NCBI GenBank assembly: GCA_902790525.1 | Contig: CADASI010000008.1 | Span: forward strand, 1-41,274 | Reading direction: 5' to 3' | From: an uncultured Eubacteriales bacterium | GTDB taxonomy: Bacteria > Bacillota > Clostridia > Christensenellales > Aristaeellaceae | Length of the DNA: 41,274 nt | Shown here: positions 3,772 through 38,210 of the stretch, piece after piece | How positions within the stretch are numbered: position 1 is the stretch's first letter | Layout of the letters: every line of letters starts with the position of its first letter | Translations under genes and position numbers: made by a program | Notes under the pieces: model-generated | Told to the model about the DNA's origin: nothing | The model's input: only the letters and a program-made list of their open reading frames with translations | Databases searched by the model: none

Positions 3772-5064
3772 CTAATTCCTCATTCGTATCAAGCCGTCTC
3801 TCTCAATCACGATTTCCGTCTCATGAAACGCCCGTATCGCCCGCACCATATATTCGACATCCCGCGCCCCGGCGCATTCGTTGGCGGAGTGCATCGCCAG
3901 CTGCGCGAGGCCGATGTCCACGGCGCTCATGGAGGCGTGGGTATTGGCGATGTTGCCCAGCGTGGAGCCGCCGGGGATGTCCGAGCGGTTGGCGAAGCGC
4001 TGCACGGGCACCCCCGCCGATGCGCACACGCCCTCGAAGATCGCCTGGGACACGCCGTCGCTGGTGTACTTCTGGCTGGCGTTGAACTTCACCACCACGC
4101 CGCCGTTCATGGTCACGCGGTTGTCGGCATCGTACTTCTCCGGGTGGTTCGGGTGCACCGCGTGGGCGTTGTCGGCGGAGAGCATCATGCTCCGGGCCAG
4201 CATGGCCTCGAGGCTCAGCCCGCCGCTTGAGGCCGCCACGCGCCCCAGCACCTCCCGCAGGAAGCTGGAGTCCGCGCCCTGGCGGGTGCCGCTGCCCACC
4301 TCCTCGTTGTCAAAGACGCACAGCACGTCCACATGGCGGGAAGGCGCGGCCTCCGCAAGCGCCCGCGCGGAGGCGAAGGCGCACTCCAGGTCGTCCAGCC
4401 GCGGCGCGGCGATGTATTCCCCGCTCGCGCCCCACAGCCGGGGTTCATCCCGGTTGACCAGGTAGAGGTCCGCCCCGGCGATCTGCGCCTTATTCACGCC
4501 CAGCGCCGCCGCGATCAGCGCCGTAAGGTCCGATCCCGCCGCGCCGTACACCGGCAGCATGTCCACCTGCGGGTTCAGCTTCACGCCGTCGTTGACCTCG
4601 CGGTTGAAGTGTATGGGCATATTGGGGATGAGGGCCAGGTCGCGGTCCAGATTGACCAGGCGCGACTCAAACCCCGCGCCGGTGTTCACGATCGCCCGCC
4701 CCGCCACGGACAGCGGACGGTCGAACCAGCTCGACATGATCATGCCGCCGTACTTCTCCACGTTCAGCGTGGCGTAGCCGTTGGCCTCCCGCGCGGCGGC
4801 GGGCTTGAGCTTGAAGCAGGGCGAATCCGAGTGGCTGGCCACGATCTGAAAGTGGTCCGCCGCCCCCTCCGGCAGCCGAAACGCGATGATCGACGACTGA
4901 TTGCGCGTCACATAGTACCCGCGCCCCGCCTCGAGCGCCCAGTCCTCGCACTCGTTGAGCGCCCGAAACCCGTGCGCCGAGAGCATCTCCGCGATATTCC
5001 CCACCGCGTGAAACGCCGTGGGCGAACGGCCGATAAAGGTCAATAGTTCCTCAATATAATCCAT
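3772..5064 (-). CDS. apeB: M18 family aminopeptidase
   Basis: A 430-residue cytosolic metallo-aminopeptidase of family M18 (aspartyl aminopeptidase-like). Metal-site motifs are visible: ASHSDSPCFKLKP near residue 80, LDDLECAFA near 225, DNEEVGSGTRQGADS near 255, and NGGVVVKFNASQKYTSD plus GGSTLGNIA toward the end. The start at 5064 is chosen because GGAGGTAAAAATGG gives an ideal ribosome site; an in-frame ATG 18 codons upstream lies inside the heptamer array and lacks one. The stop codon lies in two degenerate heptamer units. Transcription probably starts from a promoter at 5222-5250, giving a ~150-nt leader that holds inverted heptamer arrays. The general symbol apeB is used by family similarity. 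Confidence 0.92.
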   Translation of the reverse strand: MDYIEELLTFIGRSPTAFHAVGNIAEMLSAHGFRALNECEDWALEAGRGYYVTRNQSSIIAFRLPEGAADHFQIVASHSDSPCFKLKPAAAREANGYATLNVEKYGGMIMSSWFDRPLSVAGRAIVNTGAGFESRLVNLDRDLALIPNMPIHFNREVNDGVKLNPQVDMLPVYGAAGSDLTALIAAALGVNKAQIAGADLYLVNRDEPRLWGASGEYIAAPRLDDLECAFASARALAEAAPSRHVDVLCVFDNEEVGSGTRQGADSSFLREVLGRVAASSGGLSLEAMLARSMMLSADNAHAVHPNHPEKYDADNRVTMNGGVVVKFNASQKYTSDGVSQAIFEGVCASAGVPVQRFANRSDIPGGSTLGNIANTHASMSAVDIGLAQLAMHSANECAGARDVEYMVRAIRAFHETEIVIERDGLIRMRN

Positions 5065-5080
5065 TTTTACCTCCGTTAAT

Positions 5081-5199
5081 TGAGAATGGAGAATTGAGAA
5101 TTGAGAATGGCGGTGCAAATCCCTTCGGGATTTGTTTTAATATTAAAGAAATCCGCAGGATTTCCACCAGATTTCTCAATTCTCAATTTTCAATTCTCA
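5081..5199. repeat. Inverted pair of TGAGAAT heptamer arrays
   Basis: Four units on the plus strand (5081-5108: TGAGAAT, GGAGAAT, TGAGAAT, TGAGAAT) face four units on the minus strand (5172-5199). The 63-bp centre holds two small hairpins (AAATCCC/GGGATTT and GAAATCC/GGATTTC). The whole structure falls in the predicted leader of the M18 peptidase mRNA, where it could fold into a ~28-bp imperfect stem. Confidence 0.85.
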
Positions 5200-5221
5200 A
5201 TTTCATCATCCTTCCCCCTTC

Positions 5222-5318: not shown

Positions 5319-6371
5319 ATGAAACGATCTGAGCTGTTTGAATTGCGCAAGAAGTGCGGCGACCCGTCGGCGCTGTGCGGCATCAGGGACTACGTGTTCA
5401 ACGACGGCCCGGCCCGCGGGGTGCGGGCGTTCGATGTGAAGAACGGCCGCGGCCTCGAGCTGACCGTGCTGGCGGACCGCGGGCTGGACATCCCCTACCT
5501 GAGCTACAAGGGCGTGAACATCGGCCTTCTGAACAAGGTCGGCATACGGTCGCCCCATCTTTATCAGGAGGACGGCGCTTCCGGGTTCCTGAAGCAGTTC
5601 TACGCCGGCATGATGACCACCTGCGGCCTGACCTATGCCGGGGCCGCGGGCGTGGACGGCGGCAAGGCGCTGGGCCTGCACGGCCCCTACGACAACATCC
5701 CCGCCGCCAAGGTCACCGCCTGGCAGGACCACGAGGGCGACGACATCGTGCTGCGGCTGGCGGGCGAGGTGCGCGAGGCGGAGGTGTTCGGCCCCAACAT
5801 GGTGCTGACCCGCCTGATGACCGTGGACACCGAGCGCGACGCCGTGCACGTGCATGACGTGGTGGAAAACCAGGGCTTCGACACCCAGCCGCTGATGATG
5901 ATCTACCACATCAACTTCGGCTATCCCATGCTGGACGACGGCGCGAGGGCGTACTTCTCCACGTCGCAGGTCGCGCCGCGCACCGACTTCGCCAAAGAGG
6001 GCATGCACAACTACGACGTGATGGAGGCTCCCGGCGTGGGCCGCGACGAGCAGTGCTACTACCACACCGGCCACGGCGAGGGCGAGGCCTTCGCCATGCT
6101 GCACAACGAAAAGCTGGGCCTCGCCGCCATGGTGCGCTACGACAAGGCCGTGTTCCCGATGCTGTGCGAGTGGAAGTGCATGCGCGCCGGGGAGTACGCG
6201 CTGGGGCTGGAGCCCACCACCAGCGGCGTGGTGAACCGCTCGGAGGCCCGGGAGAACGGCATGCTCACATCCCTCGAGCCCGGCGAGAAGCGCGAATTCA
6301 ACGTGACCATCGAGCTGTCCGACGATCCCGCGCGCATCGACGCCTTTAAGGCCCGCGCCCACAGGCGGTGA
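5319..6371 (+). CDS. DUF4432 / aldose-1-epimerase-like protein
   Basis: A 350-residue protein of the DUF4432 family, whose fold is that of galactose mutarotase-like enzymes. Family-like stretches include GRGLELTVLADRGLDIPYLSYKG (given here only by its key residues RGLD and YKG, ~40-65), LHGPYDNIPA (~130), and the conserved IYHINFGYPML (~202) with a histidine and an asparagine that fit a sugar-binding site. The start at 5319 has GGAGG seven bases upstream; the open frame begins 30 bp earlier but without a ribosome site. It is followed after 4 bp by the DUF3783 gene, so the two form one operon. Substrate unknown; a role in carbohydrate handling is inferred from the fold. Confidence 0.82.
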   Translation: MKRSELFELRKKCGDPSALCGIRDYVFNDGPARGVRAFDVKNGRGLELTVLADRGLDIPYLSYKGVNIGLLNKVGIRSPHLYQEDGASGFLKQFYAGMMTTCGLTYAGAAGVDGGKALGLHGPYDNIPAAKVTAWQDHEGDDIVLRLAGEVREAEVFGPNMVLTRLMTVDTERDAVHVHDVVENQGFDTQPLMMIYHINFGYPMLDDGARAYFSTSQVAPRTDFAKEGMHNYDVMEAPGVGRDEQCYYHTGHGEGEAFAMLHNEKLGLAAMVRYDKAVFPMLCEWKCMRAGEYALGLEPTTSGVVNRSEARENGMLTSLEPGEKREFNVTIELSDDPARIDAFKARAHRR

Positions 6372-6375
6372 TGAT

Positions 6376-6747
6376 ATGATCCCCGCGACGGTACTGACCT
6401 TCAACCTGCCCGACGATGTCCACGCCCGCATCGAAAGCCTCGCCGCGACCCTCGACATCCGGGTCGTGGCGGTGGCCCCGGAGCGCTTCGCGCTGCCCCT
6501 GGGGGCGCTGCTGGGCATTCCGACGGGGCCCGCGGGCGTCCCGAAGGAAGCGAGCGGTTTCTCCGACCCGATGCTTTTGATGTGCAATCTGGACGAGGCG
6601 CAGTTCAACCGCTTTTTGCAGATGCTGCGCGGCCCCGGCCTGCCCCGCATCCCCCTCAAGGCCGTGCTGACGCCGCATAACGTCAGCTGGAATGCGGTGC
6701 AGCTGCATGATGAGCTTGCAAGGGAGCATGCGGCGATGGGAAGATAA
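6376..6747 (+). CDS. DUF3783 domain protein
   Basis: A 123-residue soluble protein resembling DUF3783, a small family of unknown function common in Clostridia. The C-terminal half carries the recognisable segment (MLLMCNLDEAQFNRFLQML, then PLKAVLTPHNVSWN). No catalytic motif, signal peptide or membrane segment is seen. It starts 4 bp after the DUF4432 stop codon with AGGCGGTGAT as a ribosome site, and a strong terminator follows it, so it closes a two-gene operon. Confidence 0.75.
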   Translation: MIPATVLTFNLPDDVHARIESLAATLDIRVVAVAPERFALPLGALLGIPTGPAGVPKEASGFSDPMLLMCNLDEAQFNRFLQMLRGPGLPRIPLKAVLTPHNVSWNAVQLHDELAREHAAMGR

Positions 6748-6756
6748 AACAGACAA

Positions 6757-6794
6757 TAAACGACGCGCGACCTTTGATCGCGCGTCGTTTTTTC
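6757..6794 (+). terminator. Rho-independent terminator
   Basis: An 11-bp GC-rich stem (ACGACGCGCGA / TCGCGCGTCGT) with a 7-base loop followed by T6. It ends the DUF4432-DUF3783 operon and lies between two convergent genes, so it may also serve the minus-strand gene ending at 6803. Confidence 0.9.
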
Positions 6795-6802
6795 GTGTTC
6801 GC

Positions 6803-9800
6803 TTACAGTCCCGCCAGCCTGCGTACCCTGTATCCGCTCTTCTTATAACCGGAGACGGTCTTGATGTCGCAGTGCACGGTGTTGGTGCCCTTCTCGGAGC
6901 CGCCGTTTTCGATCATCATGAAGCTGGTCTTTTCGGCGTTGGTGTAGTACAGGAACATGACCACGTGGGCGTTGCTCTTGCACACCAGGTCGCCGGGCAG
7001 CATCGCGCTGAAATCGTTGACGGTGGTGTAGGCGCTGTTCTTGAAGATGTCCTCGGTGCGGTCCGCGGAGTGGCTGCTGTTGGTGCCCCAGATGGACACG
7101 TTGACCAGCCCGGAGCAGTCGTTGCCCACGTACTTGCCGTTTAAGTACTTGTTCTTGTTGAGCATGTAGTAGCCCTGGCCGGAGTCGGTGTAGCGCTCCT
7201 CGGCGACGGCCAGCGCCGCGTTGTAGCGCCGGTTCGCGCCGGAGCCGGAGATGTACGGCATGCCGTAGTACACCACGTTCGGCTTGAAGTCCTTCGCGCC
7301 GTTTTCGGAGTTGGCGGCCTTCCAGTACTTCTGCAGGCTGGGGGTCATCCAGGTGAAGGCGTAGTTGGCGAATATGTTCTCGACGATCTCCTTGCGCCGC
7401 GCCGCGCTCTCGGCGGTCAGCGTGCCGGCGCTCTTGAGCCGGTTGATCTCGCTGAACGTCGAGGTCTTGATGGCGTTGATGATCGCCAGGTTGCCCGCGA
7501 TGCCCTCCAGCGCCGTGGTGCGGGCCGGGATGGTCATGCTGAGATCCCCGTTCTGCTTGCCGGGGTCGGGCGAGGTGGCCTTCTTCACCGTCAGCTTGAG
7601 GGTGGTCTTCTTCTTGTTGTGCGTGGTGACGGTGATCTTGGTCGTGCCCTCCTTGAGCGGCGTCACGGTGCCGTCCGCGGCCACCGTCGCCACGCTCTTC
7701 CTGCTGGACTTGAACGTGAAGCTGGTCTGGCTGCCCGCGGGGATCCGGGGCTCGATCTTGAAGACCTGGCCCACCTCGACGGTCATGCCCTTCTGGTCCA
7801 GCCACACCCTCGAGGGCGGGCCCCACACGGTGAACACCGTCTCGGCGACCAGCCCGGGCACATAGGTCCTCGCCCGCAGCACGGTCTGGCCTATGGACAG
7901 GCCGGTGATCACGCCGTCGGCGGACACCTTCGCGATCTTGGGATTTTCGACCTCATAGGTGATGTTGGACCACGCGCCGGCGTTGAACTGCATCTGGAGC
8001 TGCAGCTTCTGCTTCTTTCCGACGCCGGTCTGGGCGGGATCGAACGCCACCGTGGTGGGGGCGGCGTGGACCGTCACCGGGCAGGTGGTCTCCTTGCCGT
8101 TAAAGCTGACGAGCTTCACCGTGCCCGTGCCGGGCGCGATGCCCGTGATCTGGCCGGTGGCCTGGTTGACCGAGAACACCGACGGCGCGTCGCCGGTAAA
8201 CAGCACGCTGCCCGCGCTCCCGGCGGAGGTCTTGACTTTCAGCGTGTAGGTCTCGCCCACGCCCAGGTTCAGGGGGTTCGGCGAGGCGGAGATCCAGCGC
8301 GGCGCGCGCCGCACCACGACCTTCACCCGCATGCTGCCGCCGGCGGTCCGCACGGTCACTTTGGCGGAGCCGGTCTTTAAGCCGTAGATGACCCCGCCGC
8401 CCTCGGACCTGACCACCTTGCGGTTGCGCGAGGTGCAGCCGGTCACAGGGTCGGCGTCGCCCGCGGCGGTCTGGAGGCGCACACGGTCGCCCTTGCCGAT
8501 GCGCACGACCTTGCCCGGCGCGGCGGTGACCACCGGCGTCGGCACGGCGTACACGGTGATCTTCACCTTGGCGCGCTTTCCGTTATACGTGCGGGCGGTG
8601 ATCTTCGCCTTGCCGACGCCCTGGGCGGTGGCCACGCCCGTCTCGGCGTTGACCGCGACCACGGCGGGATTGCTGCTGGACCAGGTGACGGCGCTGGCGC
8701 TGCCCGCGGGCAGCGTGTAGCTGAGCTGCACGGATTCCCCCGCGCCCATGTAGCGCCTCTTGGGCTTCACCGTCACCTTGCTGGGGGCCTTTTTGACCGT
8801 CACGGCGCACTGCAGCGTCTTGCCGTCGGGGAACGTGGCGGTGATCTGCGCGCTGCCCCTGGCGACGCCCCTGACCTGGCCGTCGGCGGTCACCGTGACC
8901 TTCTTGGCGTCGGCGCTGGAGTAGCTCACGTTGCCCTTGTATTCCTTCGCGCCGCCTTCCCAGATCAGCCTGGGCAGCCGCCGCGTCTCACGCAGGCCGA
9001 TCGACAGCGCCCCGGCCTCGAAGGCCACGTCCGGCGGGACCTCGATCACGGTGACGTCGCAGGCGGCCTGCGCACCGTTTCCGTCCTTGGCGACGATGCG
9101 CGCGCTGCCCACGCCCACCGCGGTGACGACGCCCTGGGCATCCACCGTGGCCGCGGCCGCGTTCTCGCTCGTCCAGGTGACGGTTCCCGTGCCGCCGCTC
9201 GCCTTGAGGGTCACGGTGCCCTGCATGGGGATCGTGACCGACGTCTGGTCCAGCGTCAGCGCGGACGCGGGCTCCATCATCGAATTGGACTGATCCTCCG
9301 CGGCCACCGCCGTCTGCGCGTCGCCGTCGGCCTCCGCGTGGACGTCGGCCTTGCTCTCGGTTTCTTTCTTTTCTTCGGTGTCTTCCTTTTCTTCGGTATC
9401 TTCTTTGCCCTCGGCGTCTTCCTTTTCTTCCTTTTCTTCCTTGCCGTCGGCGTCTTCCTTGCCGTCGGCCTTTTCTTCGGCTTCTTCGTCGCTCTTCTCT
9501 TCGCTGTTTTCCTCTGTTTTATCTTCCGTGTTTTCGTCGGTCTTTTCTATGGTTTCCCCGTCGGTCTTGTCGTCGGCGTCCTGCGTGGGATCGGCGTCGG
9601 CGTCCTGCGCGGAATCTGCGTCGGCACCCTGCGCGGGGTCGGCATCGGAATCCTGCATGGGATCGGCGTCGGCGTCCTGCGCGGGATCGGCGTCGGCATC
9701 CTGCGTCGGATCGGCGTCGGCGTCCTGCGCGGGATCGGCGTCGGCATCCTGCGTGGGATCAGCGTCGGCATCTTGTACGGGATCGGCGTCGGAATCCTGC

Positions 9801-32189: not shown

Positions 32190-32273
32190 TCGAACAGCGC
32201 GTTATAAATAATTGGAACTCTCCGCCCCATGCCGACGTCTAACAGATTAACATCATTCGAGGAGGACGATCCC

Positions 32274-35200
32274 GTGAAGAAGATATGCGCGATACTGATC
32301 CTCGCCCTGCTGGCGGTGCTGGCGGGCTGCGCGCTGGCCGAGACCCGGACGGTCGCCCGCAGCGGCGCGCTGGCGGCCTATCTGGACGGCGAGGGCAAGC
32401 TGTACATGTCCGGCAACGCCCAGCCCGTCAACCGGCAGCGCGCCGACGCGCTGGTGTCCGTCGATCCGTACCGGGTGCTGTTCCTGTCCACGCAGTCGGA
32501 CGGCACGCGGGACCTTTACATGATCGACCTGGGCGCCCTGCGCGAGCGCCTGGTGGCGAAGCGCGTCCACGACGCCTGCATGGCGGACGAGGACACGCTC
32601 TACTACGTCTCAGGCGCAAACCGCGCGAAGCTGATGCGCGTGAACATGAAGACGCTGACGGAGGCGCTGGCCTGCACGGCGGCGGAGCCCATCGACCGGC
32701 TGTACAACTCCGCCGAGGGCCTGGTGTACGCGCTGGTGGACGGCGCGGGCACCATGATCTACAACCGCCTGACGGGCAGCTTCGACAGCTACCTGGGCGC
32801 GCTGCCCCAAAGCGGCCTGCGCACGGACAGCTTCGAGCTCTCCCTGAGCGACGGCAATCTGTACCTGCGCGACCTGGCCAGCCTGGTGTCCGAGCACATC
32901 GACTCCGGCGTGCAGGCCTACGCGGTGATGAAGGGTAAGGTCTACTACCTGTGTGGCAGCGGCGTGACGCGGCTCAAGTGCTACGACCCCGCGCAGATGA
33001 CCTGGCAGGTGGTGCTGGCCCTGGACTCCGCCATGGAGCGCCAGCTGACCGCCTCCGAAAAGCAGCTGTTCCTGCTGGACTACCGCGGGCAGGTCTACAC
33101 CGTGGACCCTGAAAACGGGGCGTTGAAGAATTACGTCAAGATCCCGGACGCCTCGACCTTCGACCTGCCCAAGGGCTATACCGTGTCCGATCTGAGGATC
33201 GAGGCCATGCACGGCCAGCTGAACGTCTACGCCGCGCTGGAGGAGGCCTCCGCCCAGCCCAGCTTCAGCTTCATCGAGTTCACCTCCACCTCCGATTCCG
33301 ACCTGCCCAACCTCCGCCTCGTCGGGCGCTACGCCGTAAAGGGCGAGGCGACCGGCTGGGCGCAGATCGAGCCCGCCGAACAGTACAGCCCGCTGTCCCG
33401 GGGCAGCCGGGGCAATGCGGTGCGGGCCATACAGAAGCCCCTCAGGAAGCTGGGGTATTACAACTACTACATAGACGGCATATTCGGCCCGCGCACCGAG
33501 TACGCGATCCGACTTTTGCAATCCGACCTGGGCCGTCCCGTGACCGGCGTTGCCGACGCCGAGCTGCAGCGGCTGATCCTGGAGGGCAAGCTGCCCGGCT
33601 ATGACAAATACATGGCCCTCACCCGGGGCAACCGCGGCCTGCGGGTGCAGATCATGCAGGAGAAGCTGCGGGACCTGGGCTACCTGGGCGACGCCGCCGA
33701 CGGCATATTCGGCGCGAACACCCAGCGGGCGGTGCAGCTCTTCCAGGCAGAGAACGGGCTGGACATTTCCGACGGCGCGACCCGCGAGACGCTGAAGCGG
33801 CTGTACTCCGGCAGCGCAAAGCGCTGCGCCAGCTTCATCGACCTGTACCCCGGCTACACCGGCTGCCGCGTGCGGGAGCTGAACGACCGGCTGCAGGCGC
33901 TGTACTATCTTGAATACAATCCCGGCGGCAGCTACACCTTTGAGACCGCCGAGGCTGTGCGCGCCTTCCAGCGCAGCGCGGGGCTGTCGATCAACGGCAA
34001 CGCCACCTCGGGCGTGCTGCGCAGGCTGTTTGGTCACTACGCCCCCGAGTGCCCGGGCTACATCACCCTGCGGCGCGGCGACGAAAATGGCCGCGTGGAC
34101 GCCCTGCAGCTCAGGCTCAAGAAGCTCAACTACTACTCCGGCCCGATCGACGGCTACTACGGCAAGTCCACCGAGAAGGCCGTGAAGCTGTTCCAGAAGA
34201 AGCTGGGGCTGAACGTCAGCGGCACGGCCAATGTGCGCACCCAGGCGCTGCTGTTCAGCAAGGACGCCCCCGAATACGTGAAGCCCACCGTGATCGGCAA
34301 GCCGGTGATCACCGTGGAGCGCTTCGACAACATACAGAACGGCGTCTACTGCATCAACGAAAACAGCGCCCCGGGCGGCAACGCGGTGTTCGGCTGGTAC
34401 GTCGAGGGCGAGGTCAAGCGCTTTGACGTGAAGGTGAGCGACGCCGACGGCAGGGTCGTGGTGAACGAAAAGACGCTGCTGTCCCGCATCACCGTGCCGC
34501 TGTACACGCTGGAGAAGAACCGGCTGTACGCGCTGACCGTCACCGCCTACCCCGAGGACGGCAACAGGAAGCACATCACCACCGAGAGCGTCAGGTTCAT
34601 ACACTGCGAAAACCGCCCGCCCGAGGTACCGCCGATGGGCGTCGTGGGCGACCCGCAGTTGTTCGTCAAGACCGTGCTGCGCACCCAGGGCGGCGTGCAG
34701 TACGTGCAGCCCGGCGAGGCGGCCTTCCACTGGCACGCCGACGGCGAGCTGGACCGCTACTGCGTGGAGATCTTCTCAAGCGACGGCGAGATGCTCAAGA
34801 CCCTGGAGACCAAGGGGGAGCAGCTCAGCCTGTCCACCTCGAGCCTGAGCGTGGGCAAGGTGTACACGCTGTACGTCTACGCTATCCCCGCCCGCGGGAC
34901 CATCGAGAACGCCCGCACCGCCGCGCAGCGATTCGCGCTGGAGGACCTCTCGATCCCCACCCCCACCCCGGAGCCTGAGGAGCCCGACATCACGCCGGAG
35001 CCCGTGGTGACCGTGGCGCCCACGACCGATCCCCCCGCGGATGATAACCCGCCCGCGGCGGACGGCATGGTGCCCGTGCCCGGGGAGGAGATTCCCGAGC
35101 CCGTGCCGGAGGAGATTCCCGAGCCCGCGCCCGAGGAGGTCGGCGAACCCGTTCCCGACGAGGTCAGCGAACCCGCCCCCGAAGAGGTCGGCGAGCCTGT

Positions 35201-36875
35201 GCCCGAGGAGGTCGGCGAGCCCGCCCCCGAGGAGGTCGGCGAGCCTGCGCCCGAGGAGATTCCCGAGCCCGCGCCGCTGGAAGCGCCCGGGGATGTCGGG
35301 GAGGGCGCGCCCGAGGCCGTCACCCCGCCGGTGCTGTCCTTCGATACCACCGTCGAGCAGCAGGGCGACATTACCTACGTGGCGGACGACGTGCTGGTGA
35401 TGCACTGGGCGTCCGAGGGCGACGTCAGCGCCTACTACGCCGAGGTCGTCAACAGGGATGGCGAGGTGCTGGCCGCCGCGACCACCGAGGACACCTCCAT
35501 CGCCGTGCGCCAGGGCAACCTGATGGAGGGCGAGGTCTACACGCTCAACGTCACCGCCCTGCCGGCGGACGACAGCGCCAGCCAGACCGCCTCCGCGCAG
35601 TTCGCGCTGTATCAGGCGCCCAGCGTCGAAGCGCCCGTCGTCGAGGAGCCGCCCGTCGATGCGCCCGTCGTCGAGGAACCCGTCGTCGAGGAACCCGTCG
35701 TCGAGGAACCCGTCGTCGAGGAACCCGTCATCGAGGAACCTGTAATCGAGGAACCCGTGATCGAGGAACCTGTGATCGAGGAACCTGTGATCGAGGAACC
35801 TGTCGTCGAGGAGCCGGTGATCGAGGAACCTGTGATCGAGGAACCTGTGATCGAGGAACCTGTGATCGAGGAACCCGTGATCGAGGAACCCGTGATCGAG
35901 GAACCCGTCGTCGAGGAGCCGGTGATTGAGGAACCTGTAATCGAGGAACCCGTCGTCGAGGAGCCGGTGATCGAGGAACCTGTGATCGAGGAGCCCGTGA
36001 TCGAGGAGCCGCCCGTCGAGGAACCGCCCGCGGAGGGCACCGGCGAGACCGCCGTGGCGATGGACCCCGAGACCACCGCGCAGGTCCAGACCGTGCTGGT
36101 GAGCTGGGGCTGGCTGGCGGCGGAGGGCTTCGCGCCCGGCGTGGCCGACGAGCCCACCCTGCTGGCGATCAACGCCTTCGAGGCCTGGTACAACGCCAAC
36201 ATCGGCGGGACGCTGGCCTCCGCGGAGGGCCTGGTGGACGTCAACACGCTGGCGCTTATACTGAATCAGGAGGGCGTCGCCTACCCCAAGGCGATCCACG
36301 GAGGATATGTATCTATGATGAATCTGCGCAAAAGGCTCCAGGATTACGTGCCGTTCGACGCCCAGGAGGCGGCGGACCGTCGGATGATGCTCACCGCCAT
36401 CGATGCGCTTAAAAACCCGCTGTACCGGGAGAACGTGTTCGCCCACTTCACCGCCTCGGCCTGGATCGTCAATCCCGCGCGCACGAAGGCGCTGATGGCC
36501 TGGCACAACATCTACAAAACCTGGGCCTGGACCGGCGGCCACGCCGACGGCGAGGCGGACCTGCTGGCGGTGGCGCTCCGGGAGGCGCGGGAGGAGACGG
36601 GCGTGCGCGACATCCGGCTCGTCAAACCGGAGATCTACTCGCTGGAGGTCGTGCCCGTCAACGCCCACGTGAAGCGGGGCAGCTTCGTCTCCGCCCACCT
36701 GCACATGAACGTCACCTACCTGCTGGAGGCCGACGACGCCCAGCCCCTGCACGTCAAGCCCGACGAAAACAGCGCCGTGGGCTGGCTGAGCCTCGATGAG
36801 GCGGCGGACAACCGGGACGAGCCGCACATGGCGGTGATTTACAACAAGCTAAATGCAAAATTGAACGGGCGATGA
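32274..36875 (+). CDS. Giant peptidoglycan-binding lipoprotein fused in frame to a NUDIX hydrolase
   Basis: A 1533-residue open frame. The signal peptide VKKICAILILALLAVLAGC ends in a lipobox. Residues ~25-370 look like a beta-propeller (repeated YYVSG/YLCGSG strands). Four PG_binding_1 repeats start near 373, 449, 523 and 599 (DGIFGPRTEYAI, DGIFGANTQRAV). Two Fn3/Ig-like modules (~673-893), an EPxPEE linker, a third module (~1020-1113), 23 PV(I/V)EE repeats (~1131-1245) and a last peptidoglycan-binding-like module (~1262-1340) follow. Then, with no stop codon, comes a cytosolic NUDIX enzyme (~1348-1533). The start is a GTG with GGAGG eight bases upstream; an upstream in-frame ATG at 32229 lacks one. 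Either a real fusion, a lost stop codon, or two proteins made separately. Confidence 0.8.
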   Translation: MKKICAILILALLAVLAGCALAETRTVARSGALAAYLDGEGKLYMSGNAQPVNRQRADALVSVDPYRVLFLSTQSDGTRDLYMIDLGALRERLVAKRVHDACMADEDTLYYVSGANRAKLMRVNMKTLTEALACTAAEPIDRLYNSAEGLVYALVDGAGTMIYNRLTGSFDSYLGALPQSGLRTDSFELSLSDGNLYLRDLASLVSEHIDSGVQAYAVMKGKVYYLCGSGVTRLKCYDPAQMTWQVVLALDSAMERQLTASEKQLFLLDYRGQVYTVDPENGALKNYVKIPDASTFDLPKGYTVSDLRIEAMHGQLNVYAALEEASAQPSFSFIEFTSTSDSDLPNLRLVGRYAVKGEATGWAQIEPAEQYSPLSRGSRGNAVRAIQKPLRKLGYYNYYIDGIFGPRTEYAIRLLQSDLGRPVTGVADAELQRLILEGKLPGYDKYMALTRGNRGLRVQIMQEKLRDLGYLGDAADGIFGANTQRAVQLFQAENGLDISDGATRETLKRLYSGSAKRCASFIDLYPGYTGCRVRELNDRLQALYYLEYNPGGSYTFETAEAVRAFQRSAGLSINGNATSGVLRRLFGHYAPECPGYITLRRGDENGRVDALQLRLKKLNYYSGPIDGYYGKSTEKAVKLFQKKLGLNVSGTANVRTQALLFSKDAPEYVKPTVIGKPVITVERFDNIQNGVYCINENSAPGGNAVFGWYVEGEVKRFDVKVSDADGRVVVNEKTLLSRITVPLYTLEKNRLYALTVTAYPEDGNRKHITTESVRFIHCENRPPEVPPMGVVGDPQLFVKTVLRTQGGVQYVQPGEAAFHWHADGELDRYCVEIFSSDGEMLKTLETKGEQLSLSTSSLSVGKVYTLYVYAIPARGTIENARTAAQRFALEDLSIPTPTPEPEEPDITPEPVVTVAPTTDPPADDNPPAADGMVPVPGEEIPEPVPEEIPEPAPEEVGEPVPDEVSEPAPEEVGEPVPEEVGEPAPEEVGEPAPEEIPEPAPLEAPGDVGEGAPEAVTPPVLSFDTTVEQQGDITYVADDVLVMHWASEGDVSAYYAEVVNRDGEVLAAATTEDTSIAVRQGNLMEGEVYTLNVTALPADDSASQTASAQFALYQAPSVEAPVVEEPPVDAPVVEEPVVEEPVVEEPVVEEPVIEEPVIEEPVIEEPVIEEPVIEEPVVEEPVIEEPVIEEPVIEEPVIEEPVIEEPVIEEPVVEEPVIEEPVIEEPVVEEPVIEEPVIEEPVIEEPPVEEPPAEGTGETAVAMDPETTAQVQTVLVSWGWLAAEGFAPGVADEPTLLAINAFEAWYNANIGGTLASAEGLVDVNTLALILNQEGVAYPKAIHGGYVSMMNLRKRLQDYVPFDAQEAADRRMMLTAIDALKNPLYRENVFAHFTASAWIVNPARTKALMAWHNIYKTWAWTGGHADGEADLLAVALREAREETGVRDIRLVKPEIYSLEVVPVNAHVKRGSFVSAHLHMNVTYLLEADDAQPLHVKPDENSAVGWLSLDEAADNRDEPHMAVIYNKLNAKLNGR
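35664..36008 (+). repeat. 15-bp coding tandem repeat (PVIEE x 23)
   Basis: Twenty-three in-frame 15-bp units (type CCTGTGATCGAGGAA) encode PVIEE or PVVEE in the wall lipoprotein. Units differ mainly by synonymous bases and I/V exchange, which suggests repeat-number variation by slippage or recombination. A stiff, charged spacer is likely. Confidence 0.93.
36315..36875 (+). CDS. NUDIX hydrolase (internal start within the lipoprotein frame)
   Basis: Residues that would form a 186-residue NUDIX protein: ENVFAHFTASAWIVNPARTK, then WTGGHADGEADLLAVALREAREETGV in which the NUDIX box (REAREETGV with upstream E) is recognisable. Standalone relatives of this kind in Clostridia have about this length and start. 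GGAGG (36300-36304) lies ten bases before ATG 36315, so the gene can be translated by itself even though the upstream lipoprotein frame continues into it without a stop. It would hydrolyse a nucleoside diphosphate derivative in the cytosol. The last two codons and the stop lie in a perfect palindrome (36867-36930). Confidence 0.75.
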   Translation: MMNLRKRLQDYVPFDAQEAADRRMMLTAIDALKNPLYRENVFAHFTASAWIVNPARTKALMAWHNIYKTWAWTGGHADGEADLLAVALREAREETGVRDIRLVKPEIYSLEVVPVNAHVKRGSFVSAHLHMNVTYLLEADDAQPLHVKPDENSAVGWLSLDEAADNRDEPHMAVIYNKLNAKLNGR

Positions 36876-36930
36876 GGGCATCGCCCCTACACCGGCGCGC
36901 GCATCCGTAGGGGCGATGCCCTCATCGCCC
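36867..36930. repeat. GTAGGGGCG palindrome, copy 3 (perfect)
   Basis: A perfect 24-bp inverted repeat (36867-36890 and 36907-36930) with a 16-bp loop; outer and inner ends read GGGCGATG...GGGGCG and CGCCCCTAC. It overlaps the stop codon of the NUDIX frame, so Gly-Arg-stop is encoded by the element. It shares the GTAGGGGCG/CGCCCCTAC ends with copies at 3571 and 24487 and could act as a 3' end hairpin. Confidence 0.88.
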
Positions 36931-36943
36931 ACGTATCTGTGGT

Positions 36944-37176
36944 AAAAAAACGGCCGGCGCGCCTGACCTGGTCTTTGACCCCACACCCGCCTGCTGGCTG
37001 GTTCGCTCCTAAGGACTTCGCCTCCCCACTACTACAGCTCTCAGTGTTTTGACTCACACTGGCAGGACTTACCTCTAAGCCGCACCATGCTCACCGGAAT
37101 TTTCCCGGCTTACGTGGATCGTTTCGCCTGCGACTGGCATCGACTTTCAACCACAGACGCGCGACGCGCGCCGACC
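36944..37176 (-). ncRNA. Structured ~230-nt RNA with own promoter and terminator
   Basis: Expected to start at 37176 and end in the T7 run at 36950-36944. Its first ten bases (GGUCGGCGCG) pair with CGCGCCGGCC just before the T run, closing the whole RNA. Inner stems seen: GUGG/CCAC, UAAGCC/GGCUUA around the hairpin CCGG-GAAAAUU-CCGG, CAGUGU/ACACUG, and GGUC-AAA-GACC. No convincing open frame lies inside. It is not tmRNA, RNase P RNA or SRP RNA by their conserved cores. The size and setting are those of a known large clostridial RNA class such as the raiA motif, which I would test first, but I cannot confirm a match. Confidence 0.72.
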
Positions 37177-37182
37177 AATTCC

Positions 37183-37211
37183 ATTATAAAAAAAGCCCCC
37201 GACATCGTCAA
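37183..37211 (-). promoter_or_regulatory. SigA promoter of the structured RNA, nested in the metA terminator
   Basis: Minus strand TTGACG (37211-37206), exactly 17 bp, TATAAT (37188-37183), seven bases before the first base of the RNA. The -35 box forms part of the 5' arm of the metA terminator hairpin and the T run lies directly before the -10 box. Confidence 0.85.
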
Positions 37212-37217
37212 GGGCTT
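37189..37217 (-). terminator. Terminator downstream of metA
   Basis: Minus strand stem AGCCCTTGAC / GTCGGGGGCT (10 bp with two G-U pairs, 3-base loop) followed by T7. It ends the metA transcript after the 75-bp repeat. Confidence 0.85.
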
Positions 37218-37221
37218 TTTT

Positions 37222-37296
37222 ATGATTAGCGAACCGGCGAGCAAAGCGAGCGGTTGCGCGGGTCGGGGACATCCAACGGATGACCCCGACAATCAT
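37222..37296. repeat. 75-bp dispersed repeat, copy 2
   Basis: Differs from copy 1 (19396-19470) at two of 75 positions, both G to A. It is again bounded by ATGATT/AATCAT, overlaps the stop codon of the minus-strand gene (metA, TGA at 37295-37293), and is followed on that strand by a terminator. Same orientation relative to the gene as copy 1. Confidence 0.92.
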
Positions 37297-38210
37297 TTGA
37301 TGTCCTTCAGATCATACGGCGTGTTCTGGTAGACGAAGTAGTTCAGCCAGTTGGAGTAGAGCAGGTTCGCGTGGCTGCGCCAGGTGACCCGCGGCGGCCG
37401 GGTGTCGTCGTCGTCGGGATAGTAGTTCTTCGGCACCTCGATGGGCAGGCCCAGGTTTTTGTCCCGTAGATACTCCTTCTCCAGCGTGTCGGCGTCATAC
37501 TCGGAGTGGCCGAATATGAACACCTGCCTGCCGCCGAAGGTCTGCACGGCGTACACCCCGGCCTCCTCCGAGGACGCCAGGATCTTGAGCTCCGGCACGG
37601 CCTCGATGTCCGCACGGTCCACGGTGGTGTGGCGGGAGTGCGGGGCCATGAACACGTCGTCAAAGCCCCGGAACAGTATCGACTGCCGGCGCTCCACGCG
37701 GTGCTCGAACACGCCGAACAGCTTGTGGTCGAGCTGCCGCTTGGGGATGCCGTAGTGGTAGTAGAGCCCCGCCTGCGCGCCCCAGCAGATGTGGAAGGTG
37801 GAGTGCACGTGGGTCTTGGACCACTCCATGATGCCGCACAGCTCGTCCCAGTAGTCCACCTGCTCAAAGGGCAGGTGCTCCACCGGCGCGCCGGTGATCA
37901 CCATGCCGTCGTAGCGGTTGTCGCGCACCTGATCAAAGGTCTTGTAGAAGGCCAGCATGTGGTCCTGGGACACGTTCTTCGCCTCGTGGCTCTTGACCTG
38001 CAAAAGCTCCAGCTCCACCTGCAGGGGTGTGTTGCCCAGCACCCGGGCGAGCTGCGTCTCCGTCACGACCTTGGTGGGCATCAGGTTTAAAACCAGTATG
38101 CGCAGCGGGCGGATGTCCTGGCTGATGGCCCGGAACTCCGTCATGACGAATATGTTCTCGTTTTCCAGCGTCTCCCGCGCCGGGAGCGCGTTTGGAATCT
38201 TGATCGGCAT
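37293..38210 (-). CDS. metAA: Homoserine O-acetyltransferase, MetA type
   Basis: A 305-residue MetA-family acyltransferase of methionine synthesis that activates homoserine. Catalytic residues fall at the standard numbers: Cys142 in FHICWGAQ, His235 and Glu237 in FGHSEYD. Residue 111 is Glu ([15 protein letters not shown]), the residue that in Bacillus homologues selects acetyl-CoA, whereas E. coli has Gly for succinyl-CoA; acetyl transfer is therefore predicted. The gene stands alone, with no other methionine genes in the window. The stop codon is inside the 75-bp repeat, and the terminator behind it contains the promoter of the structured RNA. Confidence 0.93.

What the first reader, a model, noticed from the sequence alone, without database searches (positions are those of the whole stretch)
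36944..37176. Structured, independently transcribed ~230-nt RNA
A SigA promoter with perfect spacing, a 10-bp stem joining the two ends, at least four internal hairpins and a T7 terminator define a complete RNA gene in a gap that would otherwise be called empty. It does not fit tmRNA, RNase P or SRP cores. It may belong to a known clostridial class (raiA motif is my first guess) or be new; either way a stable, highly structured RNA next to metA is noteworthy.
Basis: partly seen in the sequence, partly recalled or inferred. Interest (0 to 1): 0.75.

Follow-up and report, generated by a model that had tools for sequence, protein, structure and literature searches.

The report
A raiA (ModT) non-coding RNA gene
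The seemingly empty gap beside metA holds one copy of raiA/ModT, an already known and highly conserved bacterial non-coding RNA, in what appears to be an uncultured gut Clostridia species, with an unusual local arrangement of its start and stop signals.

Summary
Window 36954-37167, minus strand, is a full-length Rfam raiA RNA (RF03072; 193.8 bits, cut-off 101.3, E 7e-50), the only match in this genome. The promoter TTGACG / TATAAT is the same in 27 of 27 same-genus loci examined. In 66 aligned relatives the paired bases, pseudoknot pk-1 included, covary; 0 of 500 shuffles reach the observed values. So it is a new member of a known kind, also called ModT, a trans-acting RNA linked to growth transitions, sporulation and c-di-GMP in clostridia. 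The host has spo0A, spoIVA and 51 GGDEF matches, which fits that role but does not prove it.

Local features: the -35 box lies inside a hairpin that looks like the metA terminator (12 of 27 same-genus loci have a significant hairpin there, 2 of 51 others); closing helix P1 runs into a U-tract enriched across the genus, so P1 may double as terminator stem; P1 carries a 7-nt duplication. No transcript was measured. In passing, 24 of 51 loci outside the genus have a small zf_Tbcl zinc-protein gene just downstream.

The parts
36944..37176 (-). raiA / ModT RNA gene, predicted transcript from about 37176 to the U-tract (about 230 nt)
   Evidence: Rfam RF03072 at 36954-37167, full length; start is inferred as 6 nt after the -10 box, end from the T7; no transcript data
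37206..37211 (-). -35 box TTGACG
   Evidence: same hexamer in 27 of 27 same-genus loci
37183..37188 (-). -10 box TATAAT, spacer 17
   Evidence: TATAAT in 27 of 27, spacer 17 in 24 and 18 in 3
37189..37221 (.). hairpin AAAAAAGCCCTTGAC-GAT-GTCGGGGGCTTTTTT that contains the -35 box; probable metA terminator, able to act in both directions
   Evidence: arms 37189-37203 / 37207-37221; folds at -19.3 kcal/mol on the minus strand and -13.8 on the plus strand; better than 100 shuffles with the -35 held fixed
37166..37176 (-). P1, outer 5' arm
   Evidence: pairs with 36952-36962; helix P1 covaries at 12 of 13 pairs counted (inner register for this sequence)
36952..36962 (-). P1, outer 3' arm, followed after one base by the U-tract
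   Evidence: P1 duplex -29.8 kcal/mol against -10.0 for the best local fold of the last 32 nt
36944..36950 (-). U7 tract, longest run of the 27 same-genus loci
37156..37169 (-). 7-nt tandem duplication in the 5' arm of P1 (GCGCGTC twice on the minus strand)
   Evidence: family D6; 26 nt between -10 and motif here against 19-21 in the other same-genus loci
37126..37138 (-). P3 stem (GCC/GGC) with the 7-nt loop AGTCGCA at 37129-37135, first half of pseudoknot pk-1
   Evidence: helices 4 and 5; naming from passages of PMC11751092
37078..37084 (-). second half of pk-1 (TGCGGCT)
   Evidence: 7 pairs with the P3 loop, 97.8% of cells paired, 4 of 7 pairs with changes on both sides
37093..37109 (-). 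P5 hairpin
   Evidence: 6 of 6 pairs with changes on both sides
36990..37066 (-). P6-P7-P8 domain (P6 37062-37066 with 36990-36994, P7 37042-37061, P8 36997-37038)
   Evidence: helices 8-11
37293..38210 (-). metA, homoserine O-succinyltransferase, upstream on the same strand
   Evidence: PF04204, 472.2 bits
36867..36930 (.). inverted pair of a 24-nt genomic repeat just downstream of the RNA; possible second, distal terminator
   Evidence: arms 100% complementary; terminator-like site 36886-36867; 78 matches with up to 3 mismatches in the genome, control 0

Best explanation
This is the single-copy gene of the raiA (ModT) RNA of an uncultured Clostridia species. Shown: full-length family match, conserved promoter, covarying helices and pk-1, and a U-tract right after the closing helix. 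Inferred: RNA polymerase with the housekeeping sigma factor starts at about 37176; the RNA folds into the compact pseudoknotted raiA structure; transcription ends in the U7 when closing helix P1, 11 pairs and nearly all G-C, forms behind the polymerase, so that P1 serves as structural helix and as terminator stem; read-through may end at the inverted repeat 36867-36930 as a longer form, as ModT has a short and a long isoform. Inferred from studied clostridia: the released RNA acts in trans, is abundant in growing cells, and helps to set the transition to stationary phase and sporulation, in part through c-di-GMP; its molecular activity is unknown in any species.
For: Rfam match 193.8 bits, gathering 101.3. 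One copy in the genome; 41 of 60 relatives, own included, and 27 of 28 same-genus genomes, own included, have it. Same promoter hexamers in 27 of 27 same-genus loci. Covariation: 570 cells with changes on both sides against 155 in shuffles, 0 of 500. T count in the 10 nt after P1 4.56 on average in 27 same-genus loci against 2.48 (sd 0.29) in windows further downstream, 0 of 2000 draws as high; a T-run of 4 or more in 15 of 27. P1 duplex far stronger than the local fold, medians -29.8 and -9.1 kcal/mol. The downstream gene is convergent, so there is no gene for the RNA to lead into. Host genome: spo0A 283.5 bits over cut-off, spoIVA 690 bits, 51 GGDEF matches, one HPF/RaiA protein gene on another contig. 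Role and two isoforms: PMC11706538, abstract, passages and sections 7, 10 and 11 (part 1).
Against: No transcript, 5' end or 3' end was measured. P1 as terminator is not the only reading: the last 32 nt also fold locally (-10.0 kcal/mol here), the standard scan does not report the site, 12 of 27 same-genus loci have no T-run of 4, and a separate local terminator within 170 nt was found in 8 of 27, this one included. Those with T counts of 3 or less have a local terminator in 3 of 7 against 5 of 20 for the rest, which is no clear complementarity. Same-genus loci are related, so the shared U-tract is partly shared descent. Function is by homology only; Rfam itself labels the family cis-regulatory/riboswitch.
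Confidence: 0.88

Rival explanations
1. It is a raiA RNA, but termination does not use P1: the stop is a small local hairpin in the 3' arm (GGUC...GGCC) or the inverted repeat further downstream, and the U7 is a coincidence of composition.
For: Local fold of the last 32 nt -10.0 kcal/mol; terminator-like site at 36886-36867; 8 of 27 same-genus loci have a separate local terminator within 170 nt.
Against: T enrichment right after P1 across 27 loci, 0 of 2000 draws; the distal repeat is a mobile-type repeat with 78 matches, not a conserved part of the gene; local folds are weak (median -9.1) beside P1 (median -29.8).
Confidence: 0.4
2. It is a cis-acting leader or riboswitch that controls a downstream gene.
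For: Rfam type 'Cis-reg; riboswitch'; outside this genus 24 of 51 raiA loci lie 42-130 nt upstream of a zf_Tbcl gene on the same strand.
Against: Here the next gene downstream is on the opposite strand and a U7 follows the RNA. PMC11706538 (section 11 part 1) reports complementation in trans, and passages of PMC11477304 give distance and orientation arguments against a riboswitch.
Confidence: 0.03
3. It is a ribozyme or a processing RNA acting on other RNAs.
For: Compact fold with invariant single-stranded residues (invariant columns); raised as a speculation in PMC11706538 and in passages of PMC11751092.
Against: No activity reported in what I read; nothing here tests it.
Confidence: 0.1
4. 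The hairpin round the -35 box is not a terminator of metA but an operator or a chance inverted repeat.
For: Of the 12 same-genus loci with a significant hairpin, only 7 show a T-rich stretch after it (L001, L005, L009, L010, L024, L026, L027, read); 5 of the 10 loci with metA within 140 nt have the hairpin against 7 of the other 17, so it does not track metA.
Against: Here the hairpin folds at -19.3 kcal/mol in the metA direction and ends in T7; arms differ in sequence between species while pairing is kept.
Confidence: 0.25

Closest known systems
raiA motif RNA, Rfam RF03072; ModT of Clostridioides difficile
   Same: Full-length covariance-model match; sigma-A type promoter; P1, P3-P8 and pk-1; about 215-230 nt; possible short and long forms (PMC11706538)
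   Different: Upstream neighbour metA and a convergent downstream gene, not comFC and raiA (published 74% and 66%, quoted in PMC11706538); 7-nt duplication in P1; -35 box inside a hairpin of the upstream gene's 3' end
raiA RNA of Clostridium acetobutylicum (cryo-EM, PMC11751092, passages seen)
   Same: P1 closing helix, P3 loop pairing by 7 base pairs with the pk-loop (pk-1), larger P6-P8 domain
   Different: pk-2 and the non-canonical contacts were not tested here; stem sequences and loop lengths differ
Bidirectional intrinsic terminators between genes (general class, recalled)
   Same: A-tract, G-C stem, T-tract; foldable on both strands
   Different: Here the -35 box of the next gene lies in the stem and loop, and the T-tract abuts its -10 box

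Membership tests
raiA / ModT (RF03072) | Covariance-model score over the curated gathering score | tested here: met
   193.8 against 101.3 bits, model 1-209 of 209
raiA / ModT (RF03072) | Long-range closing helix P1 | tested here: met
   12 of 13 P1 pairs counted have changes on both sides (helix 1); this sequence needs a 7-nt bulge for the outer register
raiA / ModT (RF03072) | Pseudoknot pk-1, P3 loop with the pk-loop, 7 pairs | tested here: met
   97.8% of cells paired, 4 of 7 pairs with changes on both sides, 9 of 66 sequences unpaired at the A-U end pair
raiA / ModT (RF03072) | P6-P8 domain | tested here: met
   helices 8-11 at 97.7-100% of cells paired
raiA / ModT (RF03072) | Pseudoknot pk-2 and tertiary contacts | not tested
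   two-pair element, not counted
raiA / ModT (RF03072) | Own sigma-A type promoter | tested here: met
   by sequence only
raiA / ModT (RF03072) | Usual neighbours comFC upstream or raiA (HPF) downstream (common, not defining) | tested here: not met
   Upstream gene is metA; the single HPF match is on contig C56, not C8
raiA / ModT (RF03072) | Abundant, stable, trans-acting transcript | not testable with these tools
   no expression data
tmRNA, RNase P RNA, SRP RNA | Covariance-model match at gathering threshold | tested here: not met
   RF03072 is the only match in the window
Cis-acting riboswitch | Regulated gene downstream on the same strand | tested here: not met
   downstream ORF 32229-36875 is on the plus strand, convergent

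The most novel reading that the evidence does not exclude
In this genus the raiA RNA ends its own transcription by folding: the closing helix P1, which can form only when the 5' end is still free and the core has folded between, is the terminator stem, so release is coupled to correct folding. In front, its promoter is nested in the terminator hairpin of the upstream gene, so that one 40-bp segment ends one transcript and starts the next.
Probability: 0.35. Interest if true: 0.45.

Novelty: new member of a known kind. Interest (0 to 1): 0.27.

Why it matters
The identity settles an apparently empty gap as a gene of a conserved RNA whose molecular job is still unknown. The genus offers 27 natural variants with the same promoter, and a self-terminating P1 would give a simple handle on how the short and long ModT forms arise, which PMC11706538 leaves open. 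The recurring zf_Tbcl neighbour in other families is a testable lead to a protein partner or a co-transcribed gene.

Tried and rejected
Rejected: tmRNA, RNase P, SRP (no match); a cis-acting leader here (convergent downstream gene); protein-coding: the only ORF of 80 aa or more that overlaps most of the RNA is 37087-37332 on the plus strand, which covers only part of it and was not examined further. Rejected as support: fold energy alone (z -2.2). Tried without clear result: whether loci with a poor U-tract have a separate terminator instead (3 of 7 against 5 of 20); whether the hairpin round the -35 box goes with metA adjacency (5 of 10 against 7 of 17); whether zf_Tbcl genes occur mainly in genomes with raiA (30 of 44 with raiA, 112 of 201 without, my count from the listings: a loose association at best). 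Literature searches for a terminator that overlaps a promoter gave nothing directly on point (listings); they do not show that it is unpublished. Soares et al. 2024 (PNAS), the main genetic and synteny study, is not held, so whether it already reports P1 as terminator or zf_Tbcl as neighbour is unknown to me.

Rows dropped: 84 genomes had a raiA match together, own counted once. 83 loci were fetched; G060 was left out because its match lies at a contig edge. My motif finder failed on 5 (L054, L055, L058, L059, L142), so and later use 78 loci or their subsets: 27 same-genus (own included) and 51 others. The alignment uses 66 of the 78; 12 were left out for long inserts or short length (L029, L051, L143, L146, L148, L150, L156, L157, L158, L161, L162, L163). 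Searches used the tool's stricter filters, so absences there are not firm.

Full report
What it is. The gap between the convergent ORF 32229-36875 (plus strand) and metA (37293-38210, minus strand; PF04204) holds, on the minus strand at 36954-37167, a full-length match to Rfam RF03072, raiA RNA: 193.8 bits against a gathering score of 101.3, E 7.4e-50, the only Rfam match in the 41-kb window. It is the only match in the genome in which the window lies (3.75 Mb in 199 contigs, 94.66% complete).

The promoter is real and has 17-nt spacing. The closing stem is 36952-36962 with 37166-37176. The T7 is at 36944-36950. The fold is more stable than shuffles, but only by 2.2 standard deviations. The standard terminator scan misses the T7 site, since the stem closes a loop of some 200 nt.

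Host. The best metA relatives in named genomes are uncultured Clostridiales/Clostridia assemblies, the nearest at 97% identity being isolate RUG11088, others from sheep, goat and deer gut.

Conservation. 41 of 60 relatives, own included, carry the RNA, among them 27 of 28 same-genus genomes, own included; in an even draw from the class 44 of 245, own included, do. In 27 of 27 same-genus loci the promoter is TTGACG with TATAAT, spacing 17 in 24 and 18 in 3. On an alignment of 66 loci a structure of 55 pairs, written by me from the Rfam line and the published description of pk-1 (passages of PMC11751092), gives 96.6% of cells paired (shuffles 80.2), 36 pairs with changes on both sides (25.4), 570 such cells (155.4) and a covariation score of 0.472 (0.152); 0 of 500 shuffles reach any of them, and slid structures reach at most 42.6% paired. 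Pseudoknot pk-1 has 97.8% of cells paired and 4 of 7 pairs with changes on both sides. P3's three inner pairs and most of P4 hardly vary and so say little.

A 7-nt duplication. Here 26 nt separate the -10 box from the conserved motif; in the other same-genus loci it is 19-21. The extra bases are a tandem copy, 37156-37162 and 37163-37169. P1 can still form in its outer register with the copy bulged: duplex -29.8 kcal/mol, equal to the genus median. An assembly error cannot be excluded.

The front end. The sequence between metA and the -10 box is an inverted repeat, 37189-37203 with 37207-37221, that folds at -19.3 kcal/mol in the metA direction and -13.8 in the other and runs into T7 and the TATAAT. 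The -35 box is inside it: two U-G wobble pairs let one arm read TTGAC and still pair. With the -35 held fixed and flanks shuffled 100 times per locus, 12 of 27 same-genus loci have a hairpin at p <= 0.05, against 2 of 51 other loci, which is the chance rate. The 12 are not independent: L001, L005 and L027 share one sequence, and L011 and L014 are alike. Only 7 of the 12 show a T-rich stretch after the stem, and the hairpin does not go with metA adjacency (5 of 10 against 7 of 17). So 'the -35 box in the terminator of the upstream gene' is well supported here and in a few relatives, and only partly for the genus.

The back end. In 27 same-genus loci the 10 nt after P1 hold 4.56 T on average against 2.48 (sd 0.29) in windows 30-150 nt downstream, 0 of 2000 draws as high; the fourth base is T in 96%; 15 of 27 have a run of four or more, and the window has the longest, seven. 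P1 is much stronger than any local fold before the U-tract (medians -29.8 and -9.1 kcal/mol). A separate local terminator within 170 nt was found in 8 of 27, the window included. Outside the genus, 11 of 51 loci have five or more T within 40 nt of the motif's end. My reading is that P1 doubles as the terminator stem in much of this genus; the local-hairpin rival stays open.

Function. PMC11706538 (abstract, passages, sections 7, 10 and 11 part 1) reports for C. difficile ModT a SigA promoter, a short and a long isoform, high abundance, action in trans, and effects on growth transition, c-di-GMP and sporulation; an ortholog of Clostridium sp. CAG:138 restores function there. The host of the window has spo0A over cut-off, spoIVA, 51 GGDEF matches and one HPF/RaiA gene on another contig. 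This fits a like role and does not test it. The molecular activity of raiA RNA is not known in what I read.

Neighbours elsewhere. In 24 of 51 loci outside the genus a gene of 88-100 codons for a zf_Tbcl protein (PF13451) starts 42-130 nt after the RNA on the same strand. In the window's genus it is never in the fetched flanks, and the host's single copy is on contig C40. zf_Tbcl genes are common in the class with or without raiA (142 of 245 genomes), so this is a recurring neighbour, not a strict partner.

Verdict. An ordinary, well-supported new member of a known RNA family, with two local features of regulatory layout worth a bench test.

Noticed in passing
window 36867-36890 and 36907-36930: A 24-nt repeat, GTAGGGGCGATGCCCTCATCGCCC, stands here as an inverted pair; the genome holds 78 matches with up to 3 mismatches (control 0), many of them also as inverted pairs about 40 nt apart: a REP- or MITE-like element.
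   Followed up: partly
window 32229-36875: One open frame joins a peptidoglycan-binding/fibronectin-type protein with a long VEEPVIEEP repeat to a C-terminal NUDIX domain. In the near relative L060 these are two separate ORFs, 5409-6914 and 4624-5217: a recent fusion or an assembly slip.
   Followed up: partly
L012, L029, L038, L039, L041, L043, L045, L049, L051, L052, L057, L141, L143, L145-L151 in part, L153, L156-L158: A small zf_Tbcl (PF13451) double-zinc protein gene starts 42-130 nt downstream of the raiA RNA, same strand, in 24 of 51 loci outside the window's genus.
   Followed up: partly
L144 280-518: The raiA RNA of one same-genus genome (G020) carries a 23-nt tandem duplication of the P3 / pk-1 segment, giving two P3 hairpins.
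   Followed up: no
window 36936-36948: Just after the U7 the minus strand reads ACCACAGA, complementary to the conserved TCTGTGGT of P1's 5' side (I5); it could compete with P1 in a read-through transcript. Not seen in L005 or L027 by eye; the folded 310-nt form keeps P1, so probably chance.
   Followed up: partly
own genome: 51 GGDEF matches in one 3.7-Mb Clostridia genome, a large c-di-GMP repertoire.
   Followed up: no
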